Shown piece after piece: positions 46-19,971 of a stretch of DNA of 25,457 nt. The position numbers and the translations under genes were made by a program. The notes beneath the pieces are model-generated. The model was not told where the DNA came from. It saw nothing but the letters and a program-made list of their open reading frames with translations, and did not search any database. How positions within the stretch are numbered: the stretch's first letter is position 1; each line of letters starts with the position of its first letter. The stretch is from a virus: positions 1-25,457 of the IMG/VR virus record IMGVR_UViG_3300012271_000053; one strand, 5' to 3'.

Positions 46-1052
46 TGGACAATGAAGGTAAGGAAATGGGTGCAACCATAATTGATTTTGTTCATGTAGC
101 GGAGTGGAACGGAACTAAAATAACTCCATCAAATGGCAGGCATATAAACTTTCTAGATTATAGTCAGTATTTTAATCAGTATGATAATGTTAGAAACCTG
201 TTGTTAGTCGAAAAAGAATTGACAATTGAAACTGAACGTGGATTTTTCGATCACCCTACGATCACCACATTGCGTAGGCTTGATAATGATTACAATAATG
301 AACAGTTCTTTTTGAATGATTACACATCAGTAAATGATAATCAGTTCCGTTTCAATAATAATGGTGACATATTACTATGTGATTTCTTCACCCTGTATCT
401 GATGCTAGAAAACCATATTAGTTTGAATGTCTACGATCATGTGGTTTGTATGGATTGTTTAGAACTGACGATATTCTTCCGCAACTTACCCTCCCCACAA
501 TGTATTCGGAAGATGGGGTTAGGCTTGAGACCGAGAATGATGATGAAGTTGTCCAATCTAAAGTCATTGACCTTTTTGGCGACACCATACAATAAGAATG
601 ACATAGAGCAATATGGATTTAAATATGTCGAGTATTTCAGGAAGATCAATTTTGACCTGTTTGACAAAGAATACATTGATTCCATCTCAAGATCAGATGA
701 GTTGATTTATTATTACAGCAGAAATAACCTCAACTGTGATGATGGTATCAAATGGTTAGAAAGTATACAATCACAATATCCTGATATTATATTGACTGAT
801 AACTATATGGATATATGGCAACATAATAACATACTATATACACCTAAACCTTATGTTGGTTATATTGAGCAGTTCGGGAGAATGCTTTTTGAGGCAGAAC
901 ACTTTGGTATAAAGTGTCACATTAATAAAGAGTGTTCTGCAGAAGATAAATCAGGTATGGACTATTACTTAGACTATTACCATATAAATAATGATATGGA
1001 CATTAAAAGTGAAAACTTTTTAGACGTGATTGAGGGAGCAATACATGAGTAA
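45..1052 (+). CDS. Glycosyltransferase-like protein (GT-B-type C-terminus), unassigned substrate
   Basis: About 335 residues with no strong family match that I can name. The C-terminal third has the pattern ILYTPKPYVG...GRMLFEAEHFG..CHIN. That is the region where GT-B glycosyltransferases carry the nucleotide-sugar-binding helix with its E-x2-x-G pattern. The leftward gene ending at 14858 carries a closely parallel pattern (LLYIRTPNWY...RCFIEAEYYG..MHYFN), so the two are probably distant paralogues. Start: the ATG at 45 overlaps the upstream TAA and has AGGA at 37-40; an ATG at 30 has no good ribosome site, and an ATG at 66 preceded by GAAGG is also possible. The last codons hold a late-promoter-like TATAAATA, and the stop lies 8 bases inside the next gene. 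Possible roles are glycosylation of phage DNA, a virion protein or a host surface sugar; none is demonstrated. Confidence 0.5.
   Translation: MDNEGKEMGATIIDFVHVAEWNGTKITPSNGRHINFLDYSQYFNQYDNVRNLLLVEKELTIETERGFFDHPTITTLRRLDNDYNNEQFFLNDYTSVNDNQFRFNNNGDILLCDFFTLYLMLENHISLNVYDHVVCMDCLELTIFFRNLPSPQCIRKMGLGLRPRMMMKLSNLKSLTFLATPYNKNDIEQYGFKYVEYFRKINFDLFDKEYIDSISRSDELIYYYSRNNLNCDDGIKWLESIQSQYPDIILTDNYMDIWQHNNILYTPKPYVGYIEQFGRMLFEAEHFGIKCHINKECSAEDKSGMDYYLDYYHINNDMDIKSENFLDVIEGAIHE
983..990 (+). promoter_or_regulatory. Candidate T4-type late promoter (TATAAATA)
   Basis: A perfect match to the T4 late promoter core TATAAATA lies 54 bases before the ATG at 1045. It is inside the upstream coding region (codons for YHINN), so chance is possible. 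Its position fits a late promoter for the five-gene rightward unit ending at 3525. Confidence 0.4.
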
Positions 1053-1278
1053 GTTAAGCGACAAACTAAATGAGGCACGTGCCAACACTAGAAGCACTTC
1101 CGATGAACTAGCCCACGAAATACAGGGCACGTTTGAGGACTTGTTGTTCCAGTTTGAGATGATAGCTGAGATGGATGCACTTAGTTTCAACGTGTCAAAG
1201 AAGGTTCGTAGTGCTGTCAGTGACATGAGGAAACTCAGTAATGAGGTTGTGAAGGATATCAAAGGAGGTAAGAAATGA
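1045..1278 (+). CDS. Small protein with MSKL...LNE N-terminus, possible internal head protein
   Basis: 77 residues, unknown family, mostly helical and charged. The ATG at 1045 is preceded by GAGGGA; a TTG at 1030 in frame is not needed. The N-terminus MSKLSDKLNE|A ends in LNE, which matches the (L/I)xE cleavage rule of the T4 prohead protease gp21, and the next gene starts almost identically (MSKLSEHLNE). In T4 such short leaders target internal proteins into the prohead and are then removed. The gene overlaps its upstream neighbour by 8 bases and ends ATGA into the next. An internal head protein is an inference. Confidence 0.7.
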   Translation: MSKLSDKLNEARANTRSTSDELAHEIQGTFEDLLFQFEMIAEMDALSFNVSKKVRSAVSDMRKLSNEVVKDIKGGKK

Positions 1279-1514
1279 GTAAATTAAGTGAACATCTGAA
1301 TGAAAACAAAATGACAGGTATATATCAAAGAGCAGATGGTATGGACAAAGATGACTATACATTAATGAGAAATAGTTATTATGGTATTATTGACAATCTC
1401 CCTAATTTGGTTGACGTATTGAAAAAGGCTGGCGATGAGGCCAAACCAGAATACAAAATATGGAAACAGATTTTGGATTTATCTAATAAATCCAAGTTAG
1501 GCAAAGAGTTATGA
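1275..1514 (+). CDS. Small protein with MSKL...LNE N-terminus, possible internal head protein
   Basis: 79 residues, not recognised. It has a near-perfect ribosome site (AAAGGAGG at 1261-1268, inside the end of the preceding gene) and an ATGA overlap with that gene. The first ten residues MSKLSEHLNE repeat the leader of the preceding protein almost exactly, while the rest of the two sequences is not obviously alike. A leader shared by otherwise different proteins suggests a sorting or processing signal rather than simple gene duplication. The remainder is charged and probably helical. It ends ATGA into the next gene. Confidence 0.7.
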   Translation: MSKLSEHLNENKMTGIYQRADGMDKDDYTLMRNSYYGIIDNLPNLVDVLKKAGDEAKPEYKIWKQILDLSNKSKLGKEL

Positions 1515-1786
1515 GATATCATGAATTCTTATTAGAAGACCAACGTATTCGTGAATCATTTGGTAGTTCTGTTAAAGAATTCATGGAAATGGTTAGTGAC
1601 TACTTTGCTGAGTTTGCCAGTGATGTTAAGAGATTGAGTCACGACTTCACAAACCCTTGGAAGTCAAAGGTTGATGTCATGAAGATGAAGCGTGATGGTT
1701 GGAAGGTCAAACGACATAGTATGAGCATGGCACATGAGTTATGGGTGCTTGTTAAAGACGGAAAAGAAGAAATGGTGGGGTATTAA
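1511..1786 (+). CDS. Small protein with T4-like capsid-targeting N-terminus
   Basis: 91 residues, family unknown. The N-terminus MRYHEFLLE|D is the closest in the window to the T4 capsid-targeting sequence of internal proteins (MKTYQEFIAE type): Met-basic, a central EF, then (L/I)xE, where gp21 would cut. The middle is acidic and helical. The C-terminal half is rich in Lys and Trp (DVMKMKRDGWKVKRH), a compact basic domain that could contact packaged DNA. It starts in an ATGA overlap, and its TAA is directly followed by the ATG of the ATP-grasp gene. Virion location is inferred. Confidence 0.7.
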   Translation: MRYHEFLLEDQRIRESFGSSVKEFMEMVSDYFAEFASDVKRLSHDFTNPWKSKVDVMKMKRDGWKVKRHSMSMAHELWVLVKDGKEEMVGY

Positions 1787-3295
1787 ATGTCATTAAAAGA
1801 TGAGTTTGAATTACTAAAACTAGGTTTGAATGAGGCAGAAGGTATCGACTCTGACCCAGAAGAGGATGAGACACCAGAGATTAAAGAAGTAGAGGGTTTT
1901 AATATCCTCCTTATGACATCATCTACTGACTCTCGGAATAATAAAACTAAAAAGAACCCTACCATTATCAAAATAGAAAAATGGTGTGAAAAGAATAATG
2001 TTCCTTATTATACCTGTTTCTCTGATACAGCCTATCTAGATAAAATGAAGGACGGCGAAATCAAGATATTCAATGTTGGGGATAAAGAGGGTTACACCAT
2101 TGATCGTGACAAGACATTCGTTATTGCCAGACGTGGGGTTATGTTTCATAGATATTCACAAAACCTTATGTCCAGACTTGAACGATATAGGTTCTGTTTT
2201 TTGAATGAAAAACATTCCATATTTGAATGTGAAGATAAGTATCTGACATCATTGAAGTTAGTTGAAGCAGGGTTACCTATCCCTGATACCGCTCTGGTAC
2301 CTACAGAGCAAATGCTTGACATCGCCTTTGACAAAGTTGGTGGTCAATTTCCTGTTGTTGTCAAAACATTGAGTGGCACACAAGGCAAAGGTGTATTCAT
2401 TTCCAGCGACTACAAAGCATTGAAATCAACTCTTCAAGCCATATGGTCTGTTGGAGATGAGGTTGAGATGATGCTCCAGAAATACATTAAGTCTGATTAT
2501 GATGTTAGACTCCATGTGTTAGGTGATAAAGTTATTGCTTCAATGAAACGTGAAGTTGTAGATAACGACTTCCGTTCTAATGTACATTTAGGTGGTAAAA
2601 CAGGTAAATATAAACCAACTAAAGAGGTTCAAGATTTAGCTATCAAAGCTGCTAAATCCGTGAACTGTAAATGGTCTGGGGTTGATATCATGTTTGATAA
2701 AAAAGGCAACCCATATATACTTGAAGTTAACGCATCTCCGGGAACTGATGGCATTGAATCATTAACCAAATTGGATATTATTGATATGGTTATGAATTAC
2801 GCCAAGAATACTATTAATTGGACACGTCCACCACAACAGATCGGGGTGGTCGAAACACTTGAAATTGAAGGTATCGGTCAACTCCATGCCCGTTTTGATA
2901 CAGGGAACGCCGCCGGAAGTTCCTCACTTGACGCACAAGACATTAAAGTGACAGGTAAGAAGGCTACATGGAAAACTATGGGAAAGACCATGATAGGTAA
3001 TATTGTGGACAATGTTCGTATGAAGAACAATCATGATTCAGAAGAGAAGATTGATGAGAAGAGGATTGTCGTTGAATTGGATGTTACATTTGAAGGTGTT
3101 AATTATACGGGTGTATTATTCAACCTGAATGATAGAAGTCATAAGACAACACCTGTTCTAATCAATAAGGACTTTATGATTCGGTCTGGTTCAGTTGTTA
3201 ACCCAGCTAAAGTATATGCTGTCACGAATAAACCTGATTATCTCAAGAAGAAGAAAAAGAAGAAAATAGAAAAAGAAGAGAGGGATGAAAACTAA
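1787..3295 (+). CDS. RimK-type ATP-grasp amino-acid ligase fused to RimB-like aspartic protease domain
   Basis: 502 residues in three parts. Residues 1-35 are an acidic leader with KLGLNE|A, another (L/I)xE site. Residues about 38-340 are a RimK-family ATP-grasp ligase: VVVK at 190-193, GTQGKGV at 197-203, DVR at 239-241, DFRSNVH at 261-267, GVDI at 298-301 and EVNASPG..GIE at 313-324. These align well with E. coli RimK, which adds glutamates to the C-terminus of ribosomal protein S6. Residues about 350-490 resemble RimB (formerly 'ATP-dependent zinc protease', a retropepsin-like family): RFDTG at 369-373 with the predicted catalytic Asp371, then LDAQDI and, later, NDR...TPVLI. In bacteria RimK and RimB are separate proteins, RimB trimming the tail made by RimK. 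The C-terminus ends in a Lys run. The gene sits in a unit of LxE-leader proteins, which could be its substrates (inference). The target is unknown; both domain calls are firm to fairly firm. Confidence 0.88.
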   Translation: MSLKDEFELLKLGLNEAEGIDSDPEEDETPEIKEVEGFNILLMTSSTDSRNNKTKKNPTIIKIEKWCEKNNVPYYTCFSDTAYLDKMKDGEIKIFNVGDKEGYTIDRDKTFVIARRGVMFHRYSQNLMSRLERYRFCFLNEKHSIFECEDKYLTSLKLVEAGLPIPDTALVPTEQMLDIAFDKVGGQFPVVVKTLSGTQGKGVFISSDYKALKSTLQAIWSVGDEVEMMLQKYIKSDYDVRLHVLGDKVIASMKREVVDNDFRSNVHLGGKTGKYKPTKEVQDLAIKAAKSVNCKWSGVDIMFDKKGNPYILEVNASPGTDGIESLTKLDIIDMVMNYAKNTINWTRPPQQIGVVETLEIEGIGQLHARFDTGNAAGSSSLDAQDIKVTGKKATWKTMGKTMIGNIVDNVRMKNNHDSEEKIDEKRIVVELDVTFEGVNYTGVLFNLNDRSHKTTPVLINKDFMIRSGSVVNPAKVYAVTNKPDYLKKKKKKKIEKEERDEN

Positions 3296-3525
3296 TGAGT
3301 AAACTAAAGAATCTACTATTAGAAGAAACTCATCCTTTCCTTGAGGCATGGGAACAATCGTATGCTGACTCTCGGAATCTCAAGAATGTCTTAGGTGATA
3401 TGTTGAAGAATAAAGGTGATGACGATAAATACAAGGAACTACTGAAAATAGTAGCCGACTTGGATAAGTTCTATGCACAGAATACTAAGACAGTAATGCA
3501 AATAACAAAGAAAATGGTGAAATAA
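3295..3525 (+). CDS. Small protein with MSKL...LLE N-terminus, last gene of rightward unit
   Basis: 76 residues, no family recognised; lysine-rich and predicted helical throughout. The start forms TAATG with the stop of the ATP-grasp/protease gene, with AGAGGGA about 10 bases upstream. MSKLKNLLLEE combines the MSKL beginning of the two genes near 1045-1514 with an LLE cleavage-type site. A peptide ADSRN occurs here and TDSRN near the start of the ligase, probably by chance. The gene is followed immediately by the convergent hairpin terminator. Confidence 0.7.
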   Translation: MSKLKNLLLEETHPFLEAWEQSYADSRNLKNVLGDMLKNKGDDDKYKELLKIVADLDKFYAQNTKTVMQITKKMVK

Positions 3526-3559: not shown

Positions 3560-4471
3560 TTACTCAGATTTCCACTCTAAAAGGTGTTGGAAGGGCAATT
3601 CTTTATCAAAACTCATCCCTGCGGCACCGACATGTCCACCCCCACCGTATTTGTGGGCTAATGCACCAACGTCAATCCCTTCTTTGTCGGTATACATACT
3701 GACAGAGTAGTTCTTATTAGTGTATCCATATGCCAACATAGCATCATACTTGTTCACATCCCATTTCGACTCAAACATCTGACTGTTACAGTTCAATGCG
3801 TTTACCACCAAGAACCGATGTCCTTCCCATTCCATATCAAACGAATGAGAGTTACAGTGTTTGGCAAACATTACCTTCTGATACTCATAACAAATACGAC
3901 CTTCATTGATCACTTGATCACAATACTCTTCCGACTCAAACAACTTGAACCAGAAACTATCACTGTCACCATCAGGGTCATGGAATTTGACACCTGTAAC
4001 CAACGGGAACAGGTCTTCCTTACGGATACGTGCATCAGAGTATTCAATATCCCATACGTCATACCGACCAATCATTTTAATAGATTTAGGCATAGGATTA
4101 ACACTGCCATTGAACCATTCCCAAGTCAATTCACAACCAGACTTACCAATTTCACGGAGTCCTTTGAGTCGCTGACCACTCTTTTCAATGTCTTCAATAA
4201 CCGTCTTGTGATGGTCAATCCAAATGAAGTTCTCATAACCAACCATATCACGGATTTTAGCCATTTCATGTGGTGGTAGCGAGAAGTCAACCATATACAC
4301 TTTACGGGCACGTTTAATCTTATTCCACGGAATCTTGTATCCGAAGTTCATTCCAACAGTTTCACTCAACGGTGAGGAATCGGTATGATACCGAACGATA
4401 CCTGCCGCACAATATCCATCAGGATCTATGTGATGAAGCACAAGTGTCGAGATTTTATTACTTTTTTTCAT
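3560..4471 (-). CDS. DHH/DHHA1-family phosphoesterase
   Basis: 303 residues. N-terminal DHH domain: HHIDPDG at 13-19 (metal-binding DxD), VDFS at 61-64 and WIDHHKT at 84-90, the family signature. The C-terminus carries the DHHA1 motif GGGGHVGAAG at 276-285. The family hydrolyses short nucleic acids or small phosphodiesters: NrnA-type nanoRNase, pAp phosphatase, or cyclic-di-AMP phosphodiesterase. In a phage it may degrade nanoRNA or pAp to recycle nucleotides, or remove a cyclic-nucleotide or oligonucleotide alarm signal; the sequence does not decide. Strong ribosome site GGAAGGA before the ATG; 3 bases separate it from the transglycosylase gene upstream. It is the last gene before the convergent terminator. 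Confidence 0.88.
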   Translation of the reverse strand: MKKSNKISTLVLHHIDPDGYCAAGIVRYHTDSSPLSETVGMNFGYKIPWNKIKRARKVYMVDFSLPPHEMAKIRDMVGYENFIWIDHHKTVIEDIEKSGQRLKGLREIGKSGCELTWEWFNGSVNPMPKSIKMIGRYDVWDIEYSDARIRKEDLFPLVTGVKFHDPDGDSDSFWFKLFESEEYCDQVINEGRICYEYQKVMFAKHCNSHSFDMEWEGHRFLVVNALNCNSQMFESKWDVNKYDAMLAYGYTNKNYSVSMYTDKEGIDVGALAHKYGGGGHVGAAGMSFDKELPFQHLLEWKSE

Positions 4472-5113: not shown

Positions 5114-5599
5114 CTATTGTATTCGGTGAATTTCTCTTTCCAGTTCGTCTATCCTCTCACTTTGTTGTTGGACAATATCAATAATTGCATTCAAACTTTC
5201 TATCACGTCTACACCGTTTCGGTCAAGAAGAGTCCCAACTGTGAGAGTATTTATACTAGCTTCATTGATTGTAGCAGTACCATCAACACTTAGTGTTCCA
5301 AGAGGTCTAATAGAAGTGATGGTATCATCCCTGATAACCCACGTATCAGTGTAACTCGGTAGTCTTCCAAGGTCTGTGATTGGTTCAGGTTCTACCCCTA
5401 GACGTGACAGAGCATCATCATCAAGAGCATCATCATCAAGAGCATCACTATCAAGTTCCTGTATGCGTGTCAGCAGATCATCTTCCAATTCATCAATCCT
5501 TGTGTAGACATTATTGATATATCTCTCAACTCTATTATCAAGCCAAGGGTCACGAATAGCCACTAAATTTCCATTTCTAACAGAACTAGGATTTCCCAT
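5114..5599 (-). CDS. Fibrous coiled-coil protein with LDDDA repeats, possible tail or neck fibre component
   Basis: 161 residues, family not recognised. Residues 20-50 are a heptad-like helix (RIDELEDDLLTRIQEL) running into three tandem LDxDA units coded by a 15-bp DNA repeat. A beta-rich middle follows (GTLSVDGTATINEASINTLTVGT, hydroxylated and alternating as in phage fibre and trimerisation segments). The C-terminus is a second coiled coil (IVQQQSERIDELEREI). This coil/beta/coil layout suits a trimeric fibre, whisker or chaperone. The start overlaps the upstream gene by 37 bases and its ribosome site is weak (GAAGAAC), so initiation is uncertain. Four bases separate it from the transglycosylase gene. 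Confidence 0.6.
   Translation of the reverse strand: MGNPSSVRNGNLVAIRDPWLDNRVERYINNVYTRIDELEDDLLTRIQELDSDALDDDALDDDALSRLGVEPEPITDLGRLPSYTDTWVIRDDTITSIRPLGTLSVDGTATINEASINTLTVGTLLDRNGVDVIESLNAIIDIVQQQSERIDELEREIHRIQ
5248..5255 (-). promoter_or_regulatory. Candidate T4-type late promoter (TATAAATA)
   Basis: On the minus strand the sequence reads TATAAATACT, the extended T4 late promoter form, inside the fibrous-protein gene (codons SINT). It is oriented towards the transglycosylase gene that starts at 5110. It may be coding coincidence; the support is motif plus position only. Confidence 0.35.
5411..5455. repeat. Three tandem 15-bp units coding LDDDA
   Basis: Unit AGCATCATCATCAAG (plus strand): copies 1 and 2 are identical and copy 3 differs by two adjacent bases (ATC to CTA). 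On the coding strand they give LDSDA-LDDDA-LDDDA. The in-frame array is short and could expand or shrink by slippage without breaking the gene. Confidence 0.9.
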
Positions 5600-5877
5600 T
5601 GAAGTTCTTCATCATCATCTTCAACATCGAAGCCGGATTGTGAACCTAATTCTTTTATAACACCTGCCGCACCTGCATAATGTGCCGCATGTCCTGTTGC
5701 GTGTGCGTAATTATTATACAGGTCTGATGGGTCTTCATCAAAGTTATCCGACCCACCAAACCTGTCATCACCAAACATTCTTTCACCTTCCATAGAGGCT
5801 TGTTCGTCGTAATACTCTTTGAATACAGAGTTAACTAACTCCATATTTTCTTCGATATAAATCAAAAACTCTTCCAT
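5563..5877 (-). CDS. Acidic hypothetical phage protein
   Basis: 104 residues, unknown. Strongly acidic overall, with a central small-residue stretch YAHATGHAAHYAGAAG that could pack as a helix and has three histidines. It starts in a TAATG overlap with the phosphatase gene upstream, good evidence of translational coupling, and its 3' end overlaps the next gene by 37 bases. No catalytic motif or membrane segment is seen. Confidence 0.6.
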   Translation of the reverse strand: MEEFLIYIEENMELVNSVFKEYYDEQASMEGERMFGDDRFGGSDNFDEDPSDLYNNYAHATGHAAHYAGAAGVIKELGSQSGFDVEDDDEELQWEILVLLEMEI

Positions 5878-6784: not shown

Positions 6785-7351
6785 TTACTTCAATCGGTTA
6801 ACGACACCATCTGCGAATCCCAATTCAATTGCTTCTGGGGCATCTAAGTATTTGTTACGTTGAATCAAATCTCTGATGAACTCTGGTGTTTGACCTGATT
6901 TATCACCGATATGGTTGATAAACAAATCACGACAACGTTGTAGTTCTTCAATTTCAACCTCAATATCAGGCACAGAACCTTCGTATCCTGAAATTGGGTT
7001 GTGGAGCATCAAACGGGCGTGTCTACTCATAAACCGTTTACCCTTTGCACCTGTTGAAAAGATGAATTGTCCTGCTGACATTGCTTTACCCATACAGATA
7101 GTTTTAATGTCACAGGTTAGCATTTCCATACAATCAACGATAGCGAATGCGGCGAACAAGTCACCACCATAGCTATCTACAATCATTGTGATATCCTGCA
7201 AAGGGTCTTCTCTCTGCATTCTAATCATTTCAATATTAATCTCTTGGGCTGAGTGTTCATTAATCTCACCGGATAGATACAACACACGTCCATTGTGTCT
7301 TGTACTTTGCATCGGGTAAGGCATTTCCCGTCTTTCCATAGTTTGTACCAT
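6785..7351 (-). CDS. ClpP-like serine protease
   Basis: 188 residues, slightly shorter than bacterial ClpP (about 200). The ClpP fold is shown by DSYGGDLFAAFAIVD (oxyanion strand, 59-73), the catalytic Ser92 in GKAMSAGQF (bacterial form GQAASMGAF), His117 in MLHNP and Asp170 in KYLDAPEA, followed by GFADGVV. The triad is complete. ClpP forms a 14-subunit chamber that depends on ClpX or ClpA for unfolding. No Clp ATPase is in the window, so this one may pair with host ATPases, redirect host proteolysis, or process phage proteins. Some phages use ClpP-fold proteases for heads, but gene position does not suggest that here. AGGAG lies 9 bases before the ATG. Confidence 0.9.
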   Translation of the reverse strand: MVQTMERREMPYPMQSTRHNGRVLYLSGEINEHSAQEINIEMIRMQREDPLQDITMIVDSYGGDLFAAFAIVDCMEMLTCDIKTICMGKAMSAGQFIFSTGAKGKRFMSRHARLMLHNPISGYEGSVPDIEVEIEELQRCRDLFINHIGDKSGQTPEFIRDLIQRNKYLDAPEAIELGFADGVVNRLK

Positions 7352-9005: not shown

Positions 9006-10319
9006 TTATCCTTTTATGTTCATGACAGGGCGAACTCTGTCTATGATAGTTGCAGTAGGTTCAATACACATTTCTATAATCTCTGCATCTTTGTAAGCCA
9101 AAGGTGATTCATCTAAAGGCTTTGTTGAGGCATAAACACCTTCCATAGCCTGTTCTGCCATTTCTTTGGTAATACGTCTTTTAGCCTCAGACCGTGAATA
9201 TAATCTTCCTGCACCGTGAGGGGCAGAGTAGTTCCATTCAGGATTAGACTTACCTTCACAGATAATAAGACCTGTTTTTGGATTAAACGGGATAATCATC
9301 TTCTCACCTTCATACGAACGGATAGCACCCTTGCGGATAATCCAATCCTTGAAGTCGATGAAGTTGTGAACAGTTGTGATTTCTTCACCAAAATCTAGGT
9401 GATCAATACCCAAGTCATCCAACACATGAGCTAATTCATCCATCATTACCTTTCGGTTGAAGTCGGCATATGTCTGAGCAATGATCATGTGACACAGATA
9501 CATATACATATCCTCGCCCTGTAGATACTCCATACCTCTTGGCACATAAGTCTTTCCATACAACTCATCATAACGTGCGATTTCTTTGGCATAATTCTTT
9601 TTGGAGTGGTTATTCTTAACCCACTGAACATACACCTCTTTTGTTACCGCCGACTGACCACAGGTGGCTTGTGCTTTCTTCTGGTGATACTCAGCGATAC
9701 ACTTACCGAAGTTACGAGAGCCGGAGTGAATAGTCAACCAATAGTCACCAGTTTCGTCAGACTTTCCGATTTCAATGAAGTGATTACCACCACCCAACGA
9801 ACCAATGGATTTGATAACTCGTTCAAAGTCACATCCTATAGTGCGACACAACCCTTCTAATTCGGCTTCATCCCATTTCATCTGAGGCATTACCATATTG
9901 TATCTGATACAGAACTGTACACGCAAGTTAGCCAACTGCACTTTGACACGCTGGTAGAATAATCCCATATCAAGTTCTTTGGATACATCTTTGCGGTGGT
10001 TAGTTCCAACTGGAACAGCCTTACGCATTGCTCGGTCTAACTGGTCTTTACGAACGGTAGCGAACACGTTCTTTCCCAAGTTACCAGATAACATACCACA
10101 TCCAATATCTACCGATACAATATTAGGAATTATTTTATCACCGACTTCCATAGTGAAACCGATAACAGAACCCTTACCTGCATGACAATCAGGCATAATA
10201 CGAACAGGATTAACAAATACCTTATTGTTAATCATTTCTACCACCTGAGACATTGTAGAAGTGTCTACTTCGTCAATCATTATATGTGCATCTGTATATT
10301 TTCCTTTAAATTCAATCAA
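9006..10319 (-). CDS. rtcB: RtcB 3'-phosphate RNA ligase
   Basis: 437 residues. RtcB motifs in order: PDCHAGKG at about 43-50 and VDIGCGM at about 69-75 (metal-binding Asp and Cys), GGGNHFIEIG near 175, HSGSRNFG near 195 (metal-binding His) and APHGAGR near 366 with the His that becomes guanylylated. RtcB joins RNA ends carrying 3'-phosphate or 2',3'-cyclic phosphate to 5'-OH ends, using GTP and Mn2+, through a 3'-guanylylated RNA. Those are the ends left by many anticodon nucleases and toxins, so in a phage it probably repairs tRNAs cut by host defence, the role T4 fills with Pnkp and Rnl1. A matching cyclic-phosphate receiver-like protein is encoded at 22293-22601. Confidence 0.95.
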   Translation of the reverse strand: MIEFKGKYTDAHIMIDEVDTSTMSQVVEMINNKVFVNPVRIMPDCHAGKGSVIGFTMEVGDKIIPNIVSVDIGCGMLSGNLGKNVFATVRKDQLDRAMRKAVPVGTNHRKDVSKELDMGLFYQRVKVQLANLRVQFCIRYNMVMPQMKWDEAELEGLCRTIGCDFERVIKSIGSLGGGNHFIEIGKSDETGDYWLTIHSGSRNFGKCIAEYHQKKAQATCGQSAVTKEVYVQWVKNNHSKKNYAKEIARYDELYGKTYVPRGMEYLQGEDMYMYLCHMIIAQTYADFNRKVMMDELAHVLDDLGIDHLDFGEEITTVHNFIDFKDWIIRKGAIRSYEGEKMIIPFNPKTGLIICEGKSNPEWNYSAPHGAGRLYSRSEAKRRITKEMAEQAMEGVYASTKPLDESPLAYKDAEIIEMCIEPTATIIDRVRPVMNIKG

Positions 10320-13329: not shown

Positions 13330-14013
13330 TTAGTAATTCGATACTTCTTGACCACTCACATTAACACCTGCGAGTTCTTGTTTAATCCGAAGACCACCCG
13401 AAGTTCCGATACGATCTGCACCTGCACCAATCATTTCCAGTGCGGTTGCGAGGTCACTGACCCCACCCGATGCCTTGATCTTATATCGACCCTCACCGAC
13501 TTCTCTCAGTAATAGGATGTCTTCACCCGTTGCACCTTTTGCAGTCGTTCCAGTAGACGTTTTGATGTATTCAACACCACTCATACCGACAATCTCACTC
13601 AGGAGAGCAATTTGAACCTTGTCGAACTCACTGGTTTCAATGATAACTTTAACCAATGTGTCACCGGCGGCGGCTTTGACCAATTTGATTTCGTCAAGAA
13701 CTTGCTCCCACATTTGACTCTTGGCGAATCCAATGTTGATAACCATATCGATTTCGTCAGCACCATCCTCAATCGCCTTTTGTGCCTCAAATGCCTTGAC
13801 AACACCCGGAGTAGCACCAAGAGGGAAACCGATAACGGTACAAACCTTAACTTCATCGTTTTCAAGAAGTTCTGATGCGTATTTTACCCATGAAGGATTA
13901 ACACAGACAGAGAAAGCACCCATTTCAACGGCTTGTTCAACGTGAAGTAGGATATCATTCATTGAAGCAGTATTTTTTAGGAGAGTGTGGTCGATCATAT
14001 TAATAATGTTCAT
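13330..14013 (-). CDS. deoC: Deoxyribose-phosphate aldolase
   Basis: 227 residues, full length for DeoC. Signatures: IDHTLLK near 7-13, VCVNPSWV at 36-43, VIGFPLGA, DEIDMVINIG, IIETSEF, YIKTSTGT with the Schiff-base Lys near residue 151, KASGGV and GADRIGTS. It splits 2-deoxyribose-5-phosphate into acetaldehyde and glyceraldehyde-3-phosphate, the last step of deoxyribonucleoside salvage. In a phage it would turn sugar from degraded host DNA into energy, or work in reverse towards deoxyribose. No other deo gene is in the window. The stop of DeoC lies 36 bases before the methyltransferase start. Confidence 0.95.
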   Translation of the reverse strand: MNIINMIDHTLLKNTASMNDILLHVEQAVEMGAFSVCVNPSWVKYASELLENDEVKVCTVIGFPLGATPGVVKAFEAQKAIEDGADEIDMVINIGFAKSQMWEQVLDEIKLVKAAAGDTLVKVIIETSEFDKVQIALLSEIVGMSGVEYIKTSTGTTAKGATGEDILLLREVGEGRYKIKASGGVSDLATALEMIGAGADRIGTSGGLRIKQELAGVNVSGQEVSNY

Positions 14014-14857: not shown

Positions 14858-15691
14858 CTAGATTAGTTTTTGAATGATAACATCATCCTTTGTTAATTGT
14901 CTATCTTCTATACCTCTTTCTTGAATGTCTAACCATCTATACCAACCACCGTCTTTCACTCCTTCATCATTAAAATAATGCATTTTCCTCCCATAATATT
15001 CTGCCTCTATGAAACATCGTGGATGAGAGTCATACCAATTTGGTGTCCTAATATACAACAGTTCATCCCATTCTCCCAAGAAATTTGGGATATGTTCAGC
15101 CTTCAAGCGTTTCAATACAGGTTTGTTTGGGAACAGTTTCAGTTTTTCCTCTATCACATCATCATCCGCTCTTGATGTGACAAATAGTGCATCTTTAGGA
15201 TTATCAATATCTTTTAATAAATCAAGATTATACCTCATTCGATACTGATGATCTTTGTAAACGAATGGCATTTCACCATAATATGTCACTGGATATACAT
15301 TCTTATCAAAGAATAGTTTGGGATTTTCTGTGTGCAACTCACTGACTACCGTGAGTTCTTTACAGTTGTTTTTCAAAAACTGTTGCATGGGTGGTATTGT
15401 ACCAAAATCAAGGATTAACACTCTATTAAACTTGTAGTGCTTGAAATCGCCATATTTAACACCGAGTATCCCTTCTTTCCATCTGGTGTCCACATGTTCA
15501 AGTTTATATCTTTCTTCATAAATTTTTATATAATAATCTATGATTGTCGTTGTCGGGGTAAACAACAGGAACACCAACTTGACATCTGGGTTATACTCCA
15601 ACACCTTGATATAATGTTCAAATACATTGAAATGTGACCCAGTGATTGATTGTTGATAAATACACATTATGATTACAGCATCTATCTTCAT
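14858..15691 (-). CDS. Glycosyltransferase-like protein (GT-B-type C-terminus)
   Basis: 277 residues. The N-terminal half alternates strands and helices in Rossmann fashion (DAVIIMCIYQ, KLVFLLF, RVLILDFGT). The C-terminal half has ELLYIRTPNWYDSHPRCFIEAEYYG..MHYFN, the pattern expected around the donor-binding helix of GT-B enzymes. It is parallel to the rightward gene at 45-1052, so a paralogous pair is likely. The ATG overlaps the DNA polymerase stop as ATGA, with no strong ribosome site, which implies translation coupled to the polymerase. In T4-like phages, glucosyltransferases that modify DNA act near replication; a similar role here is plausible but unproven. Confidence 0.55.
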   Translation of the reverse strand: MKIDAVIIMCIYQQSITGSHFNVFEHYIKVLEYNPDVKLVFLLFTPTTTIIDYYIKIYEERYKLEHVDTRWKEGILGVKYGDFKHYKFNRVLILDFGTIPPMQQFLKNNCKELTVVSELHTENPKLFFDKNVYPVTYYGEMPFVYKDHQYRMRYNLDLLKDIDNPKDALFVTSRADDDVIEEKLKLFPNKPVLKRLKAEHIPNFLGEWDELLYIRTPNWYDSHPRCFIEAEYYGRKMHYFNDEGVKDGGWYRWLDIQERGIEDRQLTKDDVIIQKLI

Positions 15692-18435
15692 GTGAAAAAT
15701 GCATTGAATGCTTGGTTTTGTTCCAAAATATGCACCCTCTTCGCAGGTTCAAGCAACATCTTGAGCTTATTCGTCAAGAACTTCTCAGTCATTACCTTGA
15801 AATCTGGCTCTACACCGGCATCTGTGAATTCCTTGGGCCAACGATCATACATTACACACTTGATCCCAAAAGGATTGTACTTCACATAAACAAGTTTGTT
15901 CTTAGTATCCTCTTCAATGATAGGGTAATCATCAAACAAGTCTAATTCTTTCAACAACTTATGATAGGCGGCTACCGCCTTGACGTGGTATGGCGTTCCC
16001 TTCATTGGTTCACCATCTTTCAACCACTTACCCAACCCTTTGACTCCTTTGTTCTCGGAAATCTCTTCTGGGTAAGTGTATTTGATACTCTTCTTGTGTC
16101 GGGTATAGGATTCATAGATGGCATCGTCTGGGGCATTTCTCAATACCATTCCCAACAACTCTTTCAGGGCATCCTTGAACGCCGATGGTGTCTCTGACCT
16201 GATAATTTCCATACCAGTTACATCGATATTATCACAAGGCGTTCCTTCCTCATTTACCACGTGATACCCATACTTCTTTTTAGTGATAAACAGGGCGGAT
16301 TTACAGACAATCTCCTGTTTGAACACAATACTAAATTCTTCCTTCGACATTATAGAGTTATACTCGGCTACCTGAGTCTCCAAGTATGAACAATCATTAA
16401 CATATGTCTCAAGATGTTTGGATAGTGATAAGATTCTGTCAGATATGAACTCCTGATCATGGGCGGTCTTCCAATCACCACCAACCACACGGTCAATAAA
16501 CTGACCTAACTTAATGAAAACGGAGTCAGTGTCGATGTAGGCAACCATATCCTCTGGTACATCTTCAAGATTACACTCACCCAATTCACGAATAATGGCA
16601 AGGGTTTCCTCATTCTTCCAAACACCATCATTGAACCAACGGTTGACGTATCTCTGACCAGTAATGATTGATCTACGACCACAAGAGGCAATCGCCTCAG
16701 CGGTGTGAACATTAAAGTATCGGGAGTAAGGAACTCCTGTAACACCATACATTGAGTTTAGAACGATCTTCAACGCCCATTGTAATGCGTGGTGCTTATT
16801 GGCTTGAACGGTATGTTCAGCAATAGTATCTGGATTCCTCGCTCGACTCGCCTTACCCTTGAACTCTTTCTTTAACCCATTGATTTCCTGACGTTTTATG
16901 TAGGTCATCTGTTCAACGTGGGCGAATGCACCTTTCTTGTTCTGTAGATACATTGAGCCAGACGGAGCGCAACACAACAATCCCTTCTGTAATGCCTTGT
17001 TAAAACTGTCTAACTTGTCACCTTTCATCAGGATAATCTTGTCATCCTTCAACAATTTAAAGACAGGGAACTCACGTTTCTTAACAAAATCACATATTGG
17101 TGCCTCAAGTCGGGCAATCTCAGTGATATCTATATCAGCTCGTCCTGTAATTGTGTCAATCCATCTGCCGTGCATATCTTTATACCCAACACAACGACCA
17201 TAGTATGTCTCAGAAGACATGTTAAGGGTAATAATGGCGGTTGGGTAAGAGGATGCAATATCAAGGTCTACAACCCAATCATATTGTCCCTTCTGCGGCT
17301 CTTTAACATATGCCGCTGGGAACCACTCTTGGTGACCACCTTCCATCCGTGGCGCACACAAGTCATTACGTCTGAAATGTGTCAGCATCAGACCTTCGAC
17401 CAAGTGAGTGGCGGCGGTGTAGTGTTCCATCTTACAACGACATAACAACGCAAGTGATTGAGCAAGGAGAATATACCCTAGTTTATCTTCAAGGTCTTCT
17501 ATCCTCTTGTTATCAATGACGTTGTATTCAACATAGAGATTCCAATCAGCATCATACAGGGTTCTCAGGTCTGCGGCGATATCACCGTAATCCAATTTAC
17601 CTAACCCCAACTCTTCACGGGCGATTGTATCAAGTTTATAGTTCTCTGGGTTGTTGGTTGTATACCATTTGTAGAGGGCAAAGTAGTCAAGAACTGACAC
17701 ACCGGCGATATCAACATACATAGCACCAGACTTGTTATCATCCCAACAACGAACGATACCAATCGGTGACAGTTTTTTGTAATGGTCGGCTTTCTTGCCA
17801 AAGAGATTCTTTGAACGATTGACTATATATGGAAGGTCAAACCCGCCTCTCTCATTGGTCTTGTTATGAGGGGCAATGTTCCAACCAGTTACAACATCAG
17901 GTGCATTCTTGTGCCACCAATGGAAGAACTGTAACATCAGGTCTTGTTCTGACTCACAGTGAACATAATCAAGTTCATACTCACCAGTGTAAGGTTTCAA
18001 TCCCCAAGACTTATTAGCACCACCACCGAACTCTCTAACGTTGATCAGAGAAATAGGCCAAGCGGCTTGTTCAGCTTTCGGGAAACCTTTGGTACAATTG
18101 ACCTCGATATCAATTGAGTATACTTTGAGTGCTGGAGGGTCAATTTGATTATCAGGTATGGTGTGATACCACTCTGATAGAAATTGGATTTCCTTTGGAC
18201 TCTCATTCTCATATATAGTGTTTTTATGATGTTTCTGGTAATCGGAGTATTGTTGGTAAGTTTGGAATTCAACTTTTCTTACTGGAATTCCTTTGATTGT
18301 TTCGATGTGACCGTGAGGGTCAGCTTCAAAGACGTATGGCACCCAATCTATGATTCGGTAGTCATTGTCGCCTGAGTTCTGTTCCCACAGATAAACTCTA
18401 CTACGTTTCGTATCGTAGTGTATGTTTTTGAAAAT
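15688..18435 (-). CDS. 43: Family-B DNA polymerase (T4 gp43-like), probable ATT start
   Basis: Replicative polymerase with 3'-5' exonuclease. Counting from a GTG at 18342 (884 residues): exonuclease motifs YSIDIEVN (about 74-81), VTGWNIAPHN (about 150) and Y-x3-D in EYNVID (about 270); polymerase motif A DLDIASSYPTAI (about 359), motif B KIVLNSMYG (about 524) and motif C YIDTDSVFI (about 600). The Exo and Pol acidic residues are all there. The GTG is unlikely to be the true start: the same frame stays open for 36 more codons and reads FKNIHYDTKRSRVYLWEQ...DYRIIDW, the expected N-terminal strand region of this polymerase type. No ATG, GTG or TTG exists in that extension. ATT at 18435 follows AGG at good spacing and gives about 915 residues (T4: 898). 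A 12-bp RNA hairpin lies 27 bases before it. The stop overlaps the next gene as ATGA. Confidence 0.93.
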   Translation of the reverse strand: MFKNIHYDTKRSRVYLWEQNSGDNDYRIIDWVPYVFEADPHGHIETIKGIPVRKVEFQTYQQYSDYQKHHKNTIYENESPKEIQFLSEWYHTIPDNQIDPPALKVYSIDIEVNCTKGFPKAEQAAWPISLINVREFGGGANKSWGLKPYTGEYELDYVHCESEQDLMLQFFHWWHKNAPDVVTGWNIAPHNKTNERGGFDLPYIVNRSKNLFGKKADHYKKLSPIGIVRCWDDNKSGAMYVDIAGVSVLDYFALYKWYTTNNPENYKLDTIAREELGLGKLDYGDIAADLRTLYDADWNLYVEYNVIDNKRIEDLEDKLGYILLAQSLALLCRCKMEHYTAATHLVEGLMLTHFRRNDLCAPRMEGGHQEWFPAAYVKEPQKGQYDWVVDLDIASSYPTAIITLNMSSETYYGRCVGYKDMHGRWIDTITGRADIDITEIARLEAPICDFVKKREFPVFKLLKDDKIILMKGDKLDSFNKALQKGLLCCAPSGSMYLQNKKGAFAHVEQMTYIKRQEINGLKKEFKGKASRARNPDTIAEHTVQANKHHALQWALKIVLNSMYGVTGVPYSRYFNVHTAEAIASCGRRSIITGQRYVNRWFNDGVWKNEETLAIIRELGECNLEDVPEDMVAYIDTDSVFIKLGQFIDRVVGGDWKTAHDQEFISDRILSLSKHLETYVNDCSYLETQVAEYNSIMSKEEFSIVFKQEIVCKSALFITKKKYGYHVVNEEGTPCDNIDVTGMEIIRSETPSAFKDALKELLGMVLRNAPDDAIYESYTRHKKSIKYTYPEEISENKGVKGLGKWLKDGEPMKGTPYHVKAVAAYHKLLKELDLFDDYPIIEEDTKNKLVYVKYNPFGIKCVMYDRWPKEFTDAGVEPDFKVMTEKFLTNKLKMLLEPAKRVHILEQNQAFNAFFT

Positions 18436-18529: not shown

Positions 18530-18811
18530 TCAGGACGGTTTTCTGTCTGGCCAAGCAAGAAATTCTTTATAATCAGCCCAAAGAGACTCTTTTAACTTCT
18601 TCAAATCCTTCGACATTTTCACCAAATCTTTGACATGTTTAGGGTCAACATTAAACTTTGATTGAGATAGCGATTCCAACGCAGTCACTGCGTTAGATAA
18701 TACTTGTTGTTGATCGGAATATTTATCAGATACCTTAAATTTGGTGCCTTTAAAATTCTGTTGTTTACCTTCCATTTCTGTTAAATATTTGTCCATTAAT
18801 TCTTGTTCCAT
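18530..18811 (-). CDS. Small helical protein with LTE processing-type N-terminus
   Basis: 93 residues. GGAGG precedes the ATG. The start MEQELMDKYLTE|ME contains an (L/I)xE site like those of the rightward unit and of its upstream neighbour (MNLEKYLITE). The rest is Lys-rich and helical (KDLVKMSKDLKKLKESLW), suitable for a DNA-associated or scaffold-like internal protein. It is separated from the preceding gene by 11 bases and is probably transcribed from the late promoter at 19987-19994. Family unknown. Confidence 0.65.
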   Translation of the reverse strand: MEQELMDKYLTEMEGKQQNFKGTKFKVSDKYSDQQQVLSNAVTALESLSQSKFNVDPKHVKDLVKMSKDLKKLKESLWADYKEFLAWPDRKPS

Positions 18812-18822
18812 TTTATCCTCCG

Positions 18823-19971
18823 TTAATAAATCTTTAAATGTTCTGAACTAAACTCGTTGAGAGAAGATGCCTGTAGATACCAGTTATCAACAACCTTGTC
18901 GGCATCACCGGAATTCTTTAACCACACAGCAAACTCTAAAGCGTGAATAATTGACTGAAAGTATCCGAATGGATTTCTCTCATACGTTTTGTTCTTATCG
19001 TTCAATCTCATGTTCCAGAACTTACTGTCAACATCCGAATACACTTCTCCTGTAGCATCAATCCACAGTCTCAATATCATCCTTTTCAGTTCTTCGACGC
19101 CCTCTGGTGTCTCCGACAATCGTTTAATATCACCCGAAGATTTTTGGGGTATGTTATTCGGTGACCCAATAGTGTCTTTAAATACGTTGGAAGGCACTTT
19201 ACCATGTCTAGCACTCGTTCCTTTGATTAATATTTCACCCGTAACATCACCACCACCTGCACGGTCAAAACTTCTCAGGTCAATGGTGACTTTGTTTGTA
19301 ATGATATTAACACCTGTTCGCCACATCATAGCACCTCCCTTTGGTTTTTCTATATGAGAAAACGTAATAGGTACGTGGGGTTCTGTTGGAATGATGTGGT
19401 GTACATTGGCATTTTTCGTCTTCTTTAGAGATATCCCCATGTACTGACCGTTTCTAAGGTTCTTGGCAATTATAGCATTAAAGGCTGGCATTGACGTGAT
19501 TTTGGACATATCCTCATTCTGTAGAGGGGTCTTGATACCTTTCTTGGCAATCCAAACATCACCGGGATTCCATTTATCCCCATTAGACGGACCTTTTTTG
19601 AAGGTTTTATGGGCACTTTGATATACTTTGTATACCTCATCCATAAATCCTTTACCTCTATAAATATAGTAGTTTTTACCTATGAAACCTGAGTTGAATA
19701 GAGCGTTAACACTAAGAAGAACACTAGATACATAGTCAGGGAACTGGTCACGGAAAATAGAAAGTGCATCCTCAGTAGAGTCAATGTAAATGTCAGAAAA
19801 GGCATCATGAAATATAACAGGGTCATGAAGCATTTGAAGGGTCAGTTTACCTTTAGACTGTCTAATACTGAATCCAACACAAAATAGACACTCCTGTAAC
19901 TTGGTCTTCTCAGTGGCACTAACTTCGGTAATCAGGTATTTCTCTAAATTCATTCGGTCACCAGTGGACAT
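18823..19971 (-). CDS. Late protein of unknown function, candidate injected virion protein
   Basis: 382 residues from the first ATG; a second ATG at 19953 would give MNLEKYLITE|VSATEK, an N-terminus like T4 capsid-targeting leaders with an ITE cleavage-type site. The protein has a middle segment KWNPGDVWIAKKG (about 132-144), a pattern I have seen in uncharacterised T4-like phage proteins, and a GISLKKTKNANVHHI stretch. No enzyme signature is certain; ADP-ribosyltransferase motifs (R, STS, ExE) are not convincingly present. A perfect TATAAATA lies 15 bases before the ATG, with AAAGGTAGGA in the very short leader. Late expression plus the leader suggests a virion or head-internal protein; the biochemical role is open. 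Confidence 0.7.
   Translation of the reverse strand: MSTGDRMNLEKYLITEVSATEKTKLQECLFCVGFSIRQSKGKLTLQMLHDPVIFHDAFSDIYIDSTEDALSIFRDQFPDYVSSVLLSVNALFNSGFIGKNYYIYRGKGFMDEVYKVYQSAHKTFKKGPSNGDKWNPGDVWIAKKGIKTPLQNEDMSKITSMPAFNAIIAKNLRNGQYMGISLKKTKNANVHHIIPTEPHVPITFSHIEKPKGGAMMWRTGVNIITNKVTIDLRSFDRAGGGDVTGEILIKGTSARHGKVPSNVFKDTIGSPNNIPQKSSGDIKRLSETPEGVEELKRMILRLWIDATGEVYSDVDSKFWNMRLNDKNKTYERNPFGYFQSIIHALEFAVWLKNSGDADKVVDNWYLQASSLNEFSSEHLKIY

What the first reader, a model, noticed from the sequence alone, without database searches (positions are those of the whole stretch)
1787..3295. RimK-type ligase and RimB-like protease fused in one phage protein
Seen: complete RimK motifs (GTQGKGV, DFRSNVH, EVNASPG) followed by an RFDTG aspartic-protease motif of RimB type. 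Known: RimK adds glutamates to S6 and RimB, a separate protein, trims them. Inferred: a single writer-and-trimmer of amino-acid tails, acting on a phage or host protein. I do not recall a described phage system with both activities in one chain, though such phage proteins may already exist in databases.
Basis: partly seen in the sequence, partly recalled or inferred. Interest (0 to 1): 0.88.

Follow-up and report, generated by a model that had tools for sequence, protein, structure and literature searches.

The report
Phage-head RimK ligase fused to retropepsin
A large phage makes one protein that joins a RimK-type amino-acid-tail ligase to an HIV-protease-like trimming domain, and relatives of it carry a T4-style tag for packing into the phage head, so it may be injected with the DNA to re-tail host proteins at the start of infection.

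Summary
ORF 1787-3295 (502 aa) is one uninterrupted chain: a RimK ATP-grasp ligase (PF08443, E 3e-41; TIGR00768 over cut-off) followed by a PF05618 domain. Separate AlphaFold models match RimK crystals, and the C-domain matches RloA retropepsins and then HIV protease. The Asp-Thr-Gly is invariant in 32/32 homologues aligned. At least 369 IMG/VR stretches encode relatives; I sampled 80 loci, mostly full-length fusions.

The fusion itself is not new: Monier et al. 2008 reported marine phage RimK with C-terminal DUF785 (=PF05618), and haloarchaea have it too. What I did not find described is the N-terminus. Most family members begin with a T4 IPII/IPIII-type capsid-targeting sequence (MKTYQEFIAE|A in T4; MKAPKFKEFISE|A here): 12/18 clusters against 6/148 other ORFs in the same loci. 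Relatives encode the gp21-type prohead protease, neighbouring genes carry the same tag, and the YerA41 homologue is labelled a virion protein. The window's own copy has a degenerate tag (GLNE|A), as does T4 Alt.

Best reading: a head-packaged, injected writer-and-trimmer of amino-acid tails, functionally like Alt. Target (S6 or another) and added amino acid are unknown.

The parts
1787..3295 (+). RimK-type ligase / retropepsin fusion, 502 aa (P0001)
1787..1834 (+). Putative capsid-targeting / prohead-protease propeptide, MSLKDEFELLKLGLNE|AEG (residues 1-16); degenerate in this clade (L005 YLEE|AEG, L006 LLKE|K, L002 VVNE|K)
   Evidence: canonical form in most of the family; inferred, not shown for this copy
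2231..2791 (+). RimK ATP-grasp domain, residues 149-335
   Evidence: PF08443 E 3.3e-41; Foldseek to RimK crystals 7qys/7qyr/5zct/4iwx, best E 3.8e-23
2843..3220 (+). PF05618 retropepsin-like domain, residues 353-478
   Evidence: PF05618 E 1e-6; C-domain profile to 9g59/9g58/2pma; Foldseek to 2pma, 9g58, 9g59, then HIV-1 protease
2897..2905 (+). Catalytic D371-T372-G373 (followed by invariant N374)
   Evidence: invariant in 32/32
1045..1278 (+). Small protein, N-terminus MSKLSDKLNE|ARA, loose (I/L)xE propeptide-like
   Evidence: sequence; inference only
1275..1514 (+). Small protein, N-terminus MSKLSEHLNE|NKM, capsid-targeting-like
1511..1786 (+). Small protein, N-terminus MRYHEFLLE|DQR, strict capsid-targeting pattern (compare T4 IPIII MKTYQEFIAE)
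3295..3525 (+). Small protein, N-terminus MSKLKNLLLE|ETH, capsid-targeting-like
18823..19953 (-). Protein of 376 aa from the second ATG, N-terminus MNLEKYLITE|VSA, capsid-targeting-like; no Pfam match
   Evidence: possibly another head-packaged protein, inference
18530..18811 (-). Protein of 93 aa, N-terminus MEQELMDKYLTE|MEG, capsid-targeting-like
   Evidence: inference

Best explanation
The gene encodes a single-chain tail writer and trimmer that is packed into the phage head and injected with the DNA. Steps: (a) an N-terminal capsid-targeting propeptide docks the protein in the prohead core and is cut by the gp21-type prohead protease after an (I/L)xE site [inferred; strong for the family, weaker for this copy]; (b) the mature enzyme enters the host with the DNA [inferred from T4 IPs and Alt]; (c) the RimK ATP-grasp half uses ATP to add amino acids, most likely glutamates, to the C-terminus of a host protein [inferred from domain and conserved catalytic residues]; (d) the retropepsin half, acting as a dimer with D371 from two chains, cuts acidic tails back and so sets tail length or recycles the enzyme [inferred from RimB and RloA biochemistry]. 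The most natural target is ribosomal protein S6 or another translation component, but it is unproven.
For: Domains, folds and catalytic residues. Two of the arginines that contact poly-Glu in the RloA model (R114, R137; PMC12239564) fall on R426 and R450, invariant in 32/32 (alignment inference). RimB trims RimK-made tails, stimulates the RimK ATPase and needs its Asp (PMC7343187, PMC11957791). Capsid tag: 12/18 family clusters match [FYI]..[FY][IL].E near the N-terminus against 6/148 other ORFs in the same loci, Fisher 4.5e-10; T4 ipII and ipIII match the same pattern; rules for that tag in PMC9026906. Gp21-type protease is present in Mosig, YerA41, G003, G005 and G008. In G003, a 235 kb relative, 15/342 ORFs carry a tight tag against 2/918 internal Mets, P 2e-7, including genes beside the fusion. 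YerA41 homologue annotated 'structural protein'; 63 particle-associated proteins were found by LC-MS/MS in that phage (PMC7354516).
Against: The window protein and its three nearest relatives do not match the strict tag (only GLNE|A, YLEE|A, LLKE|K, VVNE|K), and the window fragment itself was not shown to hold a prohead protease. A group of fusions (L047, L060) lacks the tag. YerA41's copy also lacks the pattern, and its particle preparation held many replication enzymes, so co-purification is possible; the per-protein mass-spectrometry table could not be read. In Mosig-like phages the gene lies between regA and DNA polymerase, not in a head operon. The K46 contact of RloA is lost (DTGN-S/A instead of DTGA-K/R), so poly-Glu specificity is not assured. 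The S6-ligase equivalog model is far below cut-off (122.8 against 331 bits). No activity is demonstrated.
Confidence: 0.55

Rival explanations
1. It is an ordinary intracellular auxiliary enzyme made during infection (not packaged) that re-tails host ribosomal protein S6 and trims it, as Monier et al. suggested for phage RimK; the N-terminal resemblance in the window's clade is coincidence.
For: Window clade lacks the strict tag; L047/L060 fusions and Synechococcus phage RimKs have no tag; gene sits next to regA and DNA polymerase in Mosig; PMC2530865 proposal.
Against: The tag is family-wide in 12/18 clusters, is present in Melnitz RimK that lacks the protease, and tagged genes flank the fusion in the window, L005, L006 and L002. 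The YerA41 copy is labelled a particle protein.
Confidence: 0.22
2. It is packaged in the prohead but acts there, adding and trimming tails on a phage core, capsid or co-packaged protein, so the target is the phage's own.
For: Same targeting evidence; many co-packaged tagged proteins would be at hand; RimK-type enzymes can also make free poly-Glu without a protein target (PMC11957791, PMC12239564).
Against: T4 head-packaged enzymes studied so far (Alt, IPI) act in the host after ejection (PMC9026906, PMC3012670). No tail-bearing phage protein was identified here.
Confidence: 0.13
3. The retropepsin half is not a trimmer but a processing or dimerisation module: it cuts the protein's own acidic linker or other packaged proteins, or only holds the ligase together.
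For: K46-equivalent poly-Glu contact is lost and the motif is DTGN, not DTGA; the window clade has an acidic linker right after the propeptide (DSDPEEDETPEIKEVE).
Against: DTG, R426 and R450 are invariant, which an inactive dimerisation module would not need; most relatives lack the acidic linker.
Confidence: 0.1

Closest known systems
Marine phage RimK with C-terminal DUF785 (Monier, Claverie, Ogata 2008, PMC2530865)
   Same: Same domain order in phage-like contigs; very likely the same family
   Different: Reported as RimK plus a domain of unknown function; the retropepsin assignment and the capsid-targeting N-terminus were not described in the passages read
RimK / RimB of Pseudomonas (RimABK operon; PMC7343187, PMC11957791)
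   Same: Same two activities expected, ligase and DTG retropepsin that trims its product
   Different: There two separate proteins, cytosolic, host regulation with RimA and c-di-GMP; here one chain, phage-encoded, DTGN motif, probable capsid tag
RloA retropepsins and the RloABC operon (PMC12239564; PDB 9g58, 9g59)
   Same: Closest solved structures to the C-domain, with an ATP-grasp partner in the operon
   Different: RloA is secreted and separate; phage domain keeps two of the poly-Glu arginines but not K46
T4 Alt and internal proteins IPI, IPII, IPIII
   Same: Head-packaged through a gp21-cut N-terminal propeptide and injected; Alt is a protein-modifying enzyme
   Different: Alt is an ADP-ribosyltransferase; no ligase or protease chemistry; unrelated fold
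Haloarchaeal RimK-retropepsin fusion (Haladaptatus, Salinirubellus; Q5V351 in PMC2530865)
   Same: Same domain order
   Different: Cellular, no capsid tag, DTGA motif; its ligase domain is on a separate, fully supported branch, so independent fusion is likely
Synechococcus phage 'S6 glutaminyl transferase' (phrog_2599) and Methylophilales phage Melnitz RimK
   Same: Phage RimK ATP-grasp enzymes
   Different: No retropepsin domain; Synechococcus versions lack the tag, Melnitz has one, (M)TQKFSQFITE|E

Membership tests
RimK family of alpha-L-glutamate ligases (TIGR00768 / PF08443) | Profile score over curated cut-off with the full ATP-grasp motif set | tested here: met
   TIGR00768 179.5 over 143.4 bits; PF08443 141.4 over 21; motif residues invariant; RimK fold
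Ribosomal S6--glutamate ligase (RimK sensu stricto, PRK10446) | Equivalog score over cut-off | tested here: not met
   122.8 bits against cut-off 331; so S6 as target is not supported by family membership
RimK family of alpha-L-glutamate ligases (TIGR00768 / PF08443) | ATP-dependent addition of glutamate | not testable with these tools
   needs enzyme assay
PF05618 (DUF785) retropepsin-like aspartic proteases | Profile over gathering cut-off, retropepsin fold, catalytic DTG | tested here: met
   29.2 over 27 bits; 27/32 homologues match at E<=0.001; fold 2pma/9g58/9g59 then HIV protease; DTG 32/32
RimB or RloA equivalogs | Equivalog / exception score over cut-off | tested here: not met
   RloA2 36, RloA1 32.6, RloA3 23.6, RimB 20.2 bits against 250, 280, 210, 200
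RimB or RloA equivalogs | Basic poly-Glu contacts (RloA K46, R114, R137) | tested here: inconclusive
   R426 and R450 align with two of them and are invariant, K46 replaced by S/A/G
T4-type internal head (capsid-targeted) proteins | Short N-terminal capsid-targeting propeptide with (I/L)xE cleavage site | tested here: inconclusive
   Family: met in 12/18 clusters, Fisher 4.5e-10. Window copy: only a loose LNE|A site
T4-type internal head (capsid-targeted) proteins | gp21-type prohead protease in the same phage | tested here: inconclusive
   PF03420 found in 5 related records; window is a 25 kb fragment where its absence would say nothing
T4-type internal head (capsid-targeted) proteins | Present in purified virions and injected | not testable with these tools
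   Only indirect: YerA41_066 annotated structural protein, particle mass spectrometry in PMC7354516

The most novel reading that the evidence does not exclude
A virion-delivered amino-acid ligase: the phage injects a preformed enzyme that writes and length-controls poly-amino-acid tails on host proteins before any phage gene is expressed, within a larger set of capsid-tagged effectors. It would be the first head-packaged amidoligase effector known to me.
Probability: 0.42. Interest if true: 0.82.

Novelty: new variant of a known kind. Interest (0 to 1): 0.62.

Why it matters
T4 Alt is the textbook case of a protein-modifying enzyme packed in a phage head. This family would add a different chemistry, ATP-driven tailing plus trimming, carried by abundant marine phages including ones that infect Pelagibacter. 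It gives a direct test of why many marine T4-like phages keep a RimK gene, an open point since 2008, and the short capsid tag offers a simple way to list further head-delivered effectors in uncultivated phages.

Tried and rejected
Searching cellular genomes for the fusion used only two narrow peptide patterns and returned RimK-only archaeal and Bdellovibrio hits, so it does not show that bacteria lack the fusion; plasmid records then showed haloarchaeal fusions. A full-length Foldseek list was filled by ATP-grasp hits, so the C-domain was modelled apart. A glutamine riboswitch, known in Mosig and Melnitz (PMC9004378), was looked for beside the gene: none in the seven loci scanned. TATAAATA-like late promoters are too frequent in G003 (49) to be informative, and none lies right upstream of the fusion. 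The loose (I/L)xE pattern alone barely separates N-termini from internal methionines in Mosig (46/184 against 105/586) and was dropped for stricter patterns; even the strict pattern has likely false positives such as window 5563-5877 (MEEFLIYIEEN). Pfam gives no credible name to the tagged neighbours scanned; two further ones match NT5C and, marginally, Zeta_toxin. Whether one or two origins underlie the phage fusions is unresolved in the tree.

Full report
WHAT IS THERE. The window is a 25,457-base IMG/VR virus record. ORF 1787-3295 (+) is open from ATG to stop and encodes 502 aa. Residues 149-335 match the RimK ATP-grasp domain (PF08443, E 3.3e-41) and residues 353-478 match PF05618, 'putative ATP-dependent zinc protease' (E 1e-6, 29.2 bits over a cut-off of 27). 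NCBIfam puts the N-terminal part in the RimK family above the curated cut-off, but not in the S6-ligase equivalog, and finds RloA/RimB retropepsin models for the C-terminal part well below their cut-offs. PF05618 is now known to be a retropepsin-like aspartic protease family and not a zinc enzyme: RimB needs Asp31 of its DTG and trims RimK-made glutamate tails (PMC11957791; PMC7343187), and RloA crystals show the retropepsin fold (PMC12239564).

CONSERVATION AND FOLD. A scan of IMG/VR with a four-member alignment found 369 encoding relatives, of which 80 loci were kept. In 32 aligned homologues, D371-T372-G373-N374 and the RimK catalytic residues are invariant. The AlphaFold model of the whole chain (mean pLDDT 82) matches RimK crystals (7qys, 7qyr, 5zct, 4iwx; best E 3.8e-23). 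The C-domain alone (pLDDT 84) matches 2pma (DUF785), 9g58 and 9g59 (RloA) and then HIV-1 proteases. A C-domain sequence profile hits the same three structures at E 2.5e-8 to 3.7e-7. By alignment, the RloA poly-glutamate contacts R114 and R137 correspond to R426 and R450, both invariant, while K46 is replaced by small residues; the family has DTGN where RimB and RloA have DTGA. I take the domain as an active protease whose substrate is probably acidic but perhaps not identical to RimB's.

THE N-TERMINUS. Most homologues begin with sequences such as MKAPKFKEFISE|AKD (L028), MQVPKFKDYLTE|AKV (L021), MQVQPFKNYLEE|ATG (Mosig) and MGIKQYLTE|GND (L008). T4 IPII and IPIII, read from the T4 record, begin MKTYQEFIAE|A, the classic capsid-targeting sequence in which residues 4 and 7 govern targeting and 8 and 10 processing (PMC9026906). 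The spacing aromatic-x-x-aromatic-[I/L]-x-E is the same. Twelve of 18 family clusters match a strict version of it, against 6 of 148 other ORFs in the same loci (Fisher 4.5e-10). Caveats: the pattern was chosen after seeing the family, clusters at 80% identity are not fully independent, and starts were assigned by simple rules.

THE WINDOW'S OWN COPY. P0001 and its nearest relatives L005, L006 and L002 do not match the strict pattern. They show MSLKDEFELLKLGLNE|AEG, MSLKDEFEKLKLKYLEE|AEG, MTLKEEFEQLRLLKE|K and MSLKDEFEQLKVVNE|K. T4 Alt, a packaged and injected enzyme, also fails the strict pattern (MELITELFDED), so this is not exclusion. Neighbours help: the window genes at 1275, 1511 and 3295, L005 genes at 1369 and 3868 and several L002 and L006 genes flanking the fusion carry the tag. 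In the 235 kb relative G003, 15 of 342 ORFs have a tight tag against 2 of 918 internal methionines (P 2e-7). G003 encodes a gp21-type prohead protease.

VIRION EVIDENCE. The full-length homologue in Yersinia phage YerA41 (33% identity) is annotated 'structural protein'. In that phage LC-MS/MS identified 63 particle-associated proteins, and the authors proposed that the enzymes among them are injected (PMC7354516). That list also held polymerases and helicases, so the evidence is moderate, and I could not read the per-protein table.

PRIOR ART. Monier et al. 2008 (PMC2530865) described more than a hundred marine contigs with phage-like RimK, several with C-terminal DUF785, and suggested modification of host translation. 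They also noted fusions in Synechococcus and Halobacteria. My plasmid search recovered haloarchaeal fusions, whose ligase domain lies apart from the phage sequences with full support. Burroughs et al. 2015 (PMC4431377) proposed that another phage ATP-grasp clade, R2K, modifies host proteins in the manner of phage ADP-ribosyltransferases. In the open-access library I found no paper that describes a RimK protein as capsid-targeted or injected; subscription papers are mostly not held.

MECHANISM. Shown: architecture, conserved catalytic residues, family-wide tag statistics, protease gene in relatives; folds are predicted models that match solved structures. Inferred: packaging, cleavage, injection, glutamate as the added residue, a host target, trimming. 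I give 0.55 to the full reading (head-packaged, injected writer and trimmer), about 0.97 to the two-domain architecture, about 0.75 to head packaging for the tagged part of the family and 0.55-0.6 for this copy, and about 0.35 to S6 as the target.

VERDICT. New variant of a known kind (head-delivered protein-modifying enzymes).

Noticed in passing
G003 104577-106289 (+), locus L099:4577-6289: The gp21-like prohead protease of a relative of the window phage holds an intein-like insert of about 360 aa (junctions ...GHPP|CVLGDTEIL ... SFFTGN|CPEV), splitting the PF03420 match in two. Its own N-terminus is MKKGYLITE|C.
   Followed up: partly
G003 10-15 kb, 52-67 kb, 85-87 kb; L002 4817-10003: Clusters of small proteins that share only a capsid-targeting-like N-terminus (MRLQRYLQE, MKFKQFINE, MRLQKYLIE ...), probably a large set of head-packaged proteins with unknown functions.
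   Followed up: partly
L005:1369-1872 and L005:3868-4455: Tagged neighbours of the closest relative: MKLNKYLKE|E followed by an NT5C-type nucleotidase domain (E 6e-10), and MKLKIYLTE|S followed by a protein with an ADP-ribosyltransferase-like ILYRGG...RSESVFAT pattern (by eye only, no Pfam match).
   Followed up: partly
L047:7281-8153: Directly downstream of a tag-less fusion lies a tagged protein (MHNFKSFLDE|G) with a marginal Zeta_toxin (P-loop kinase) match, 22.4 against cut-off 22.3 bits.
   Followed up: no
L111:82-1131 (Methylophilales phage Melnitz-3): RimK without retropepsin but with a TTG-start capsid tag (M)TQKFSQFITE|E: tag and protease domain vary independently.
   Followed up: partly
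window 3560-4471, 6785-7351, 9006-10319, 13330-14013, 15688-18342: By eye only: DHH-type phosphoesterase, ClpP-like protease, RtcB-like RNA ligase, DeoC-like aldolase and family-B DNA polymerase in the same phage fragment.
   Followed up: no
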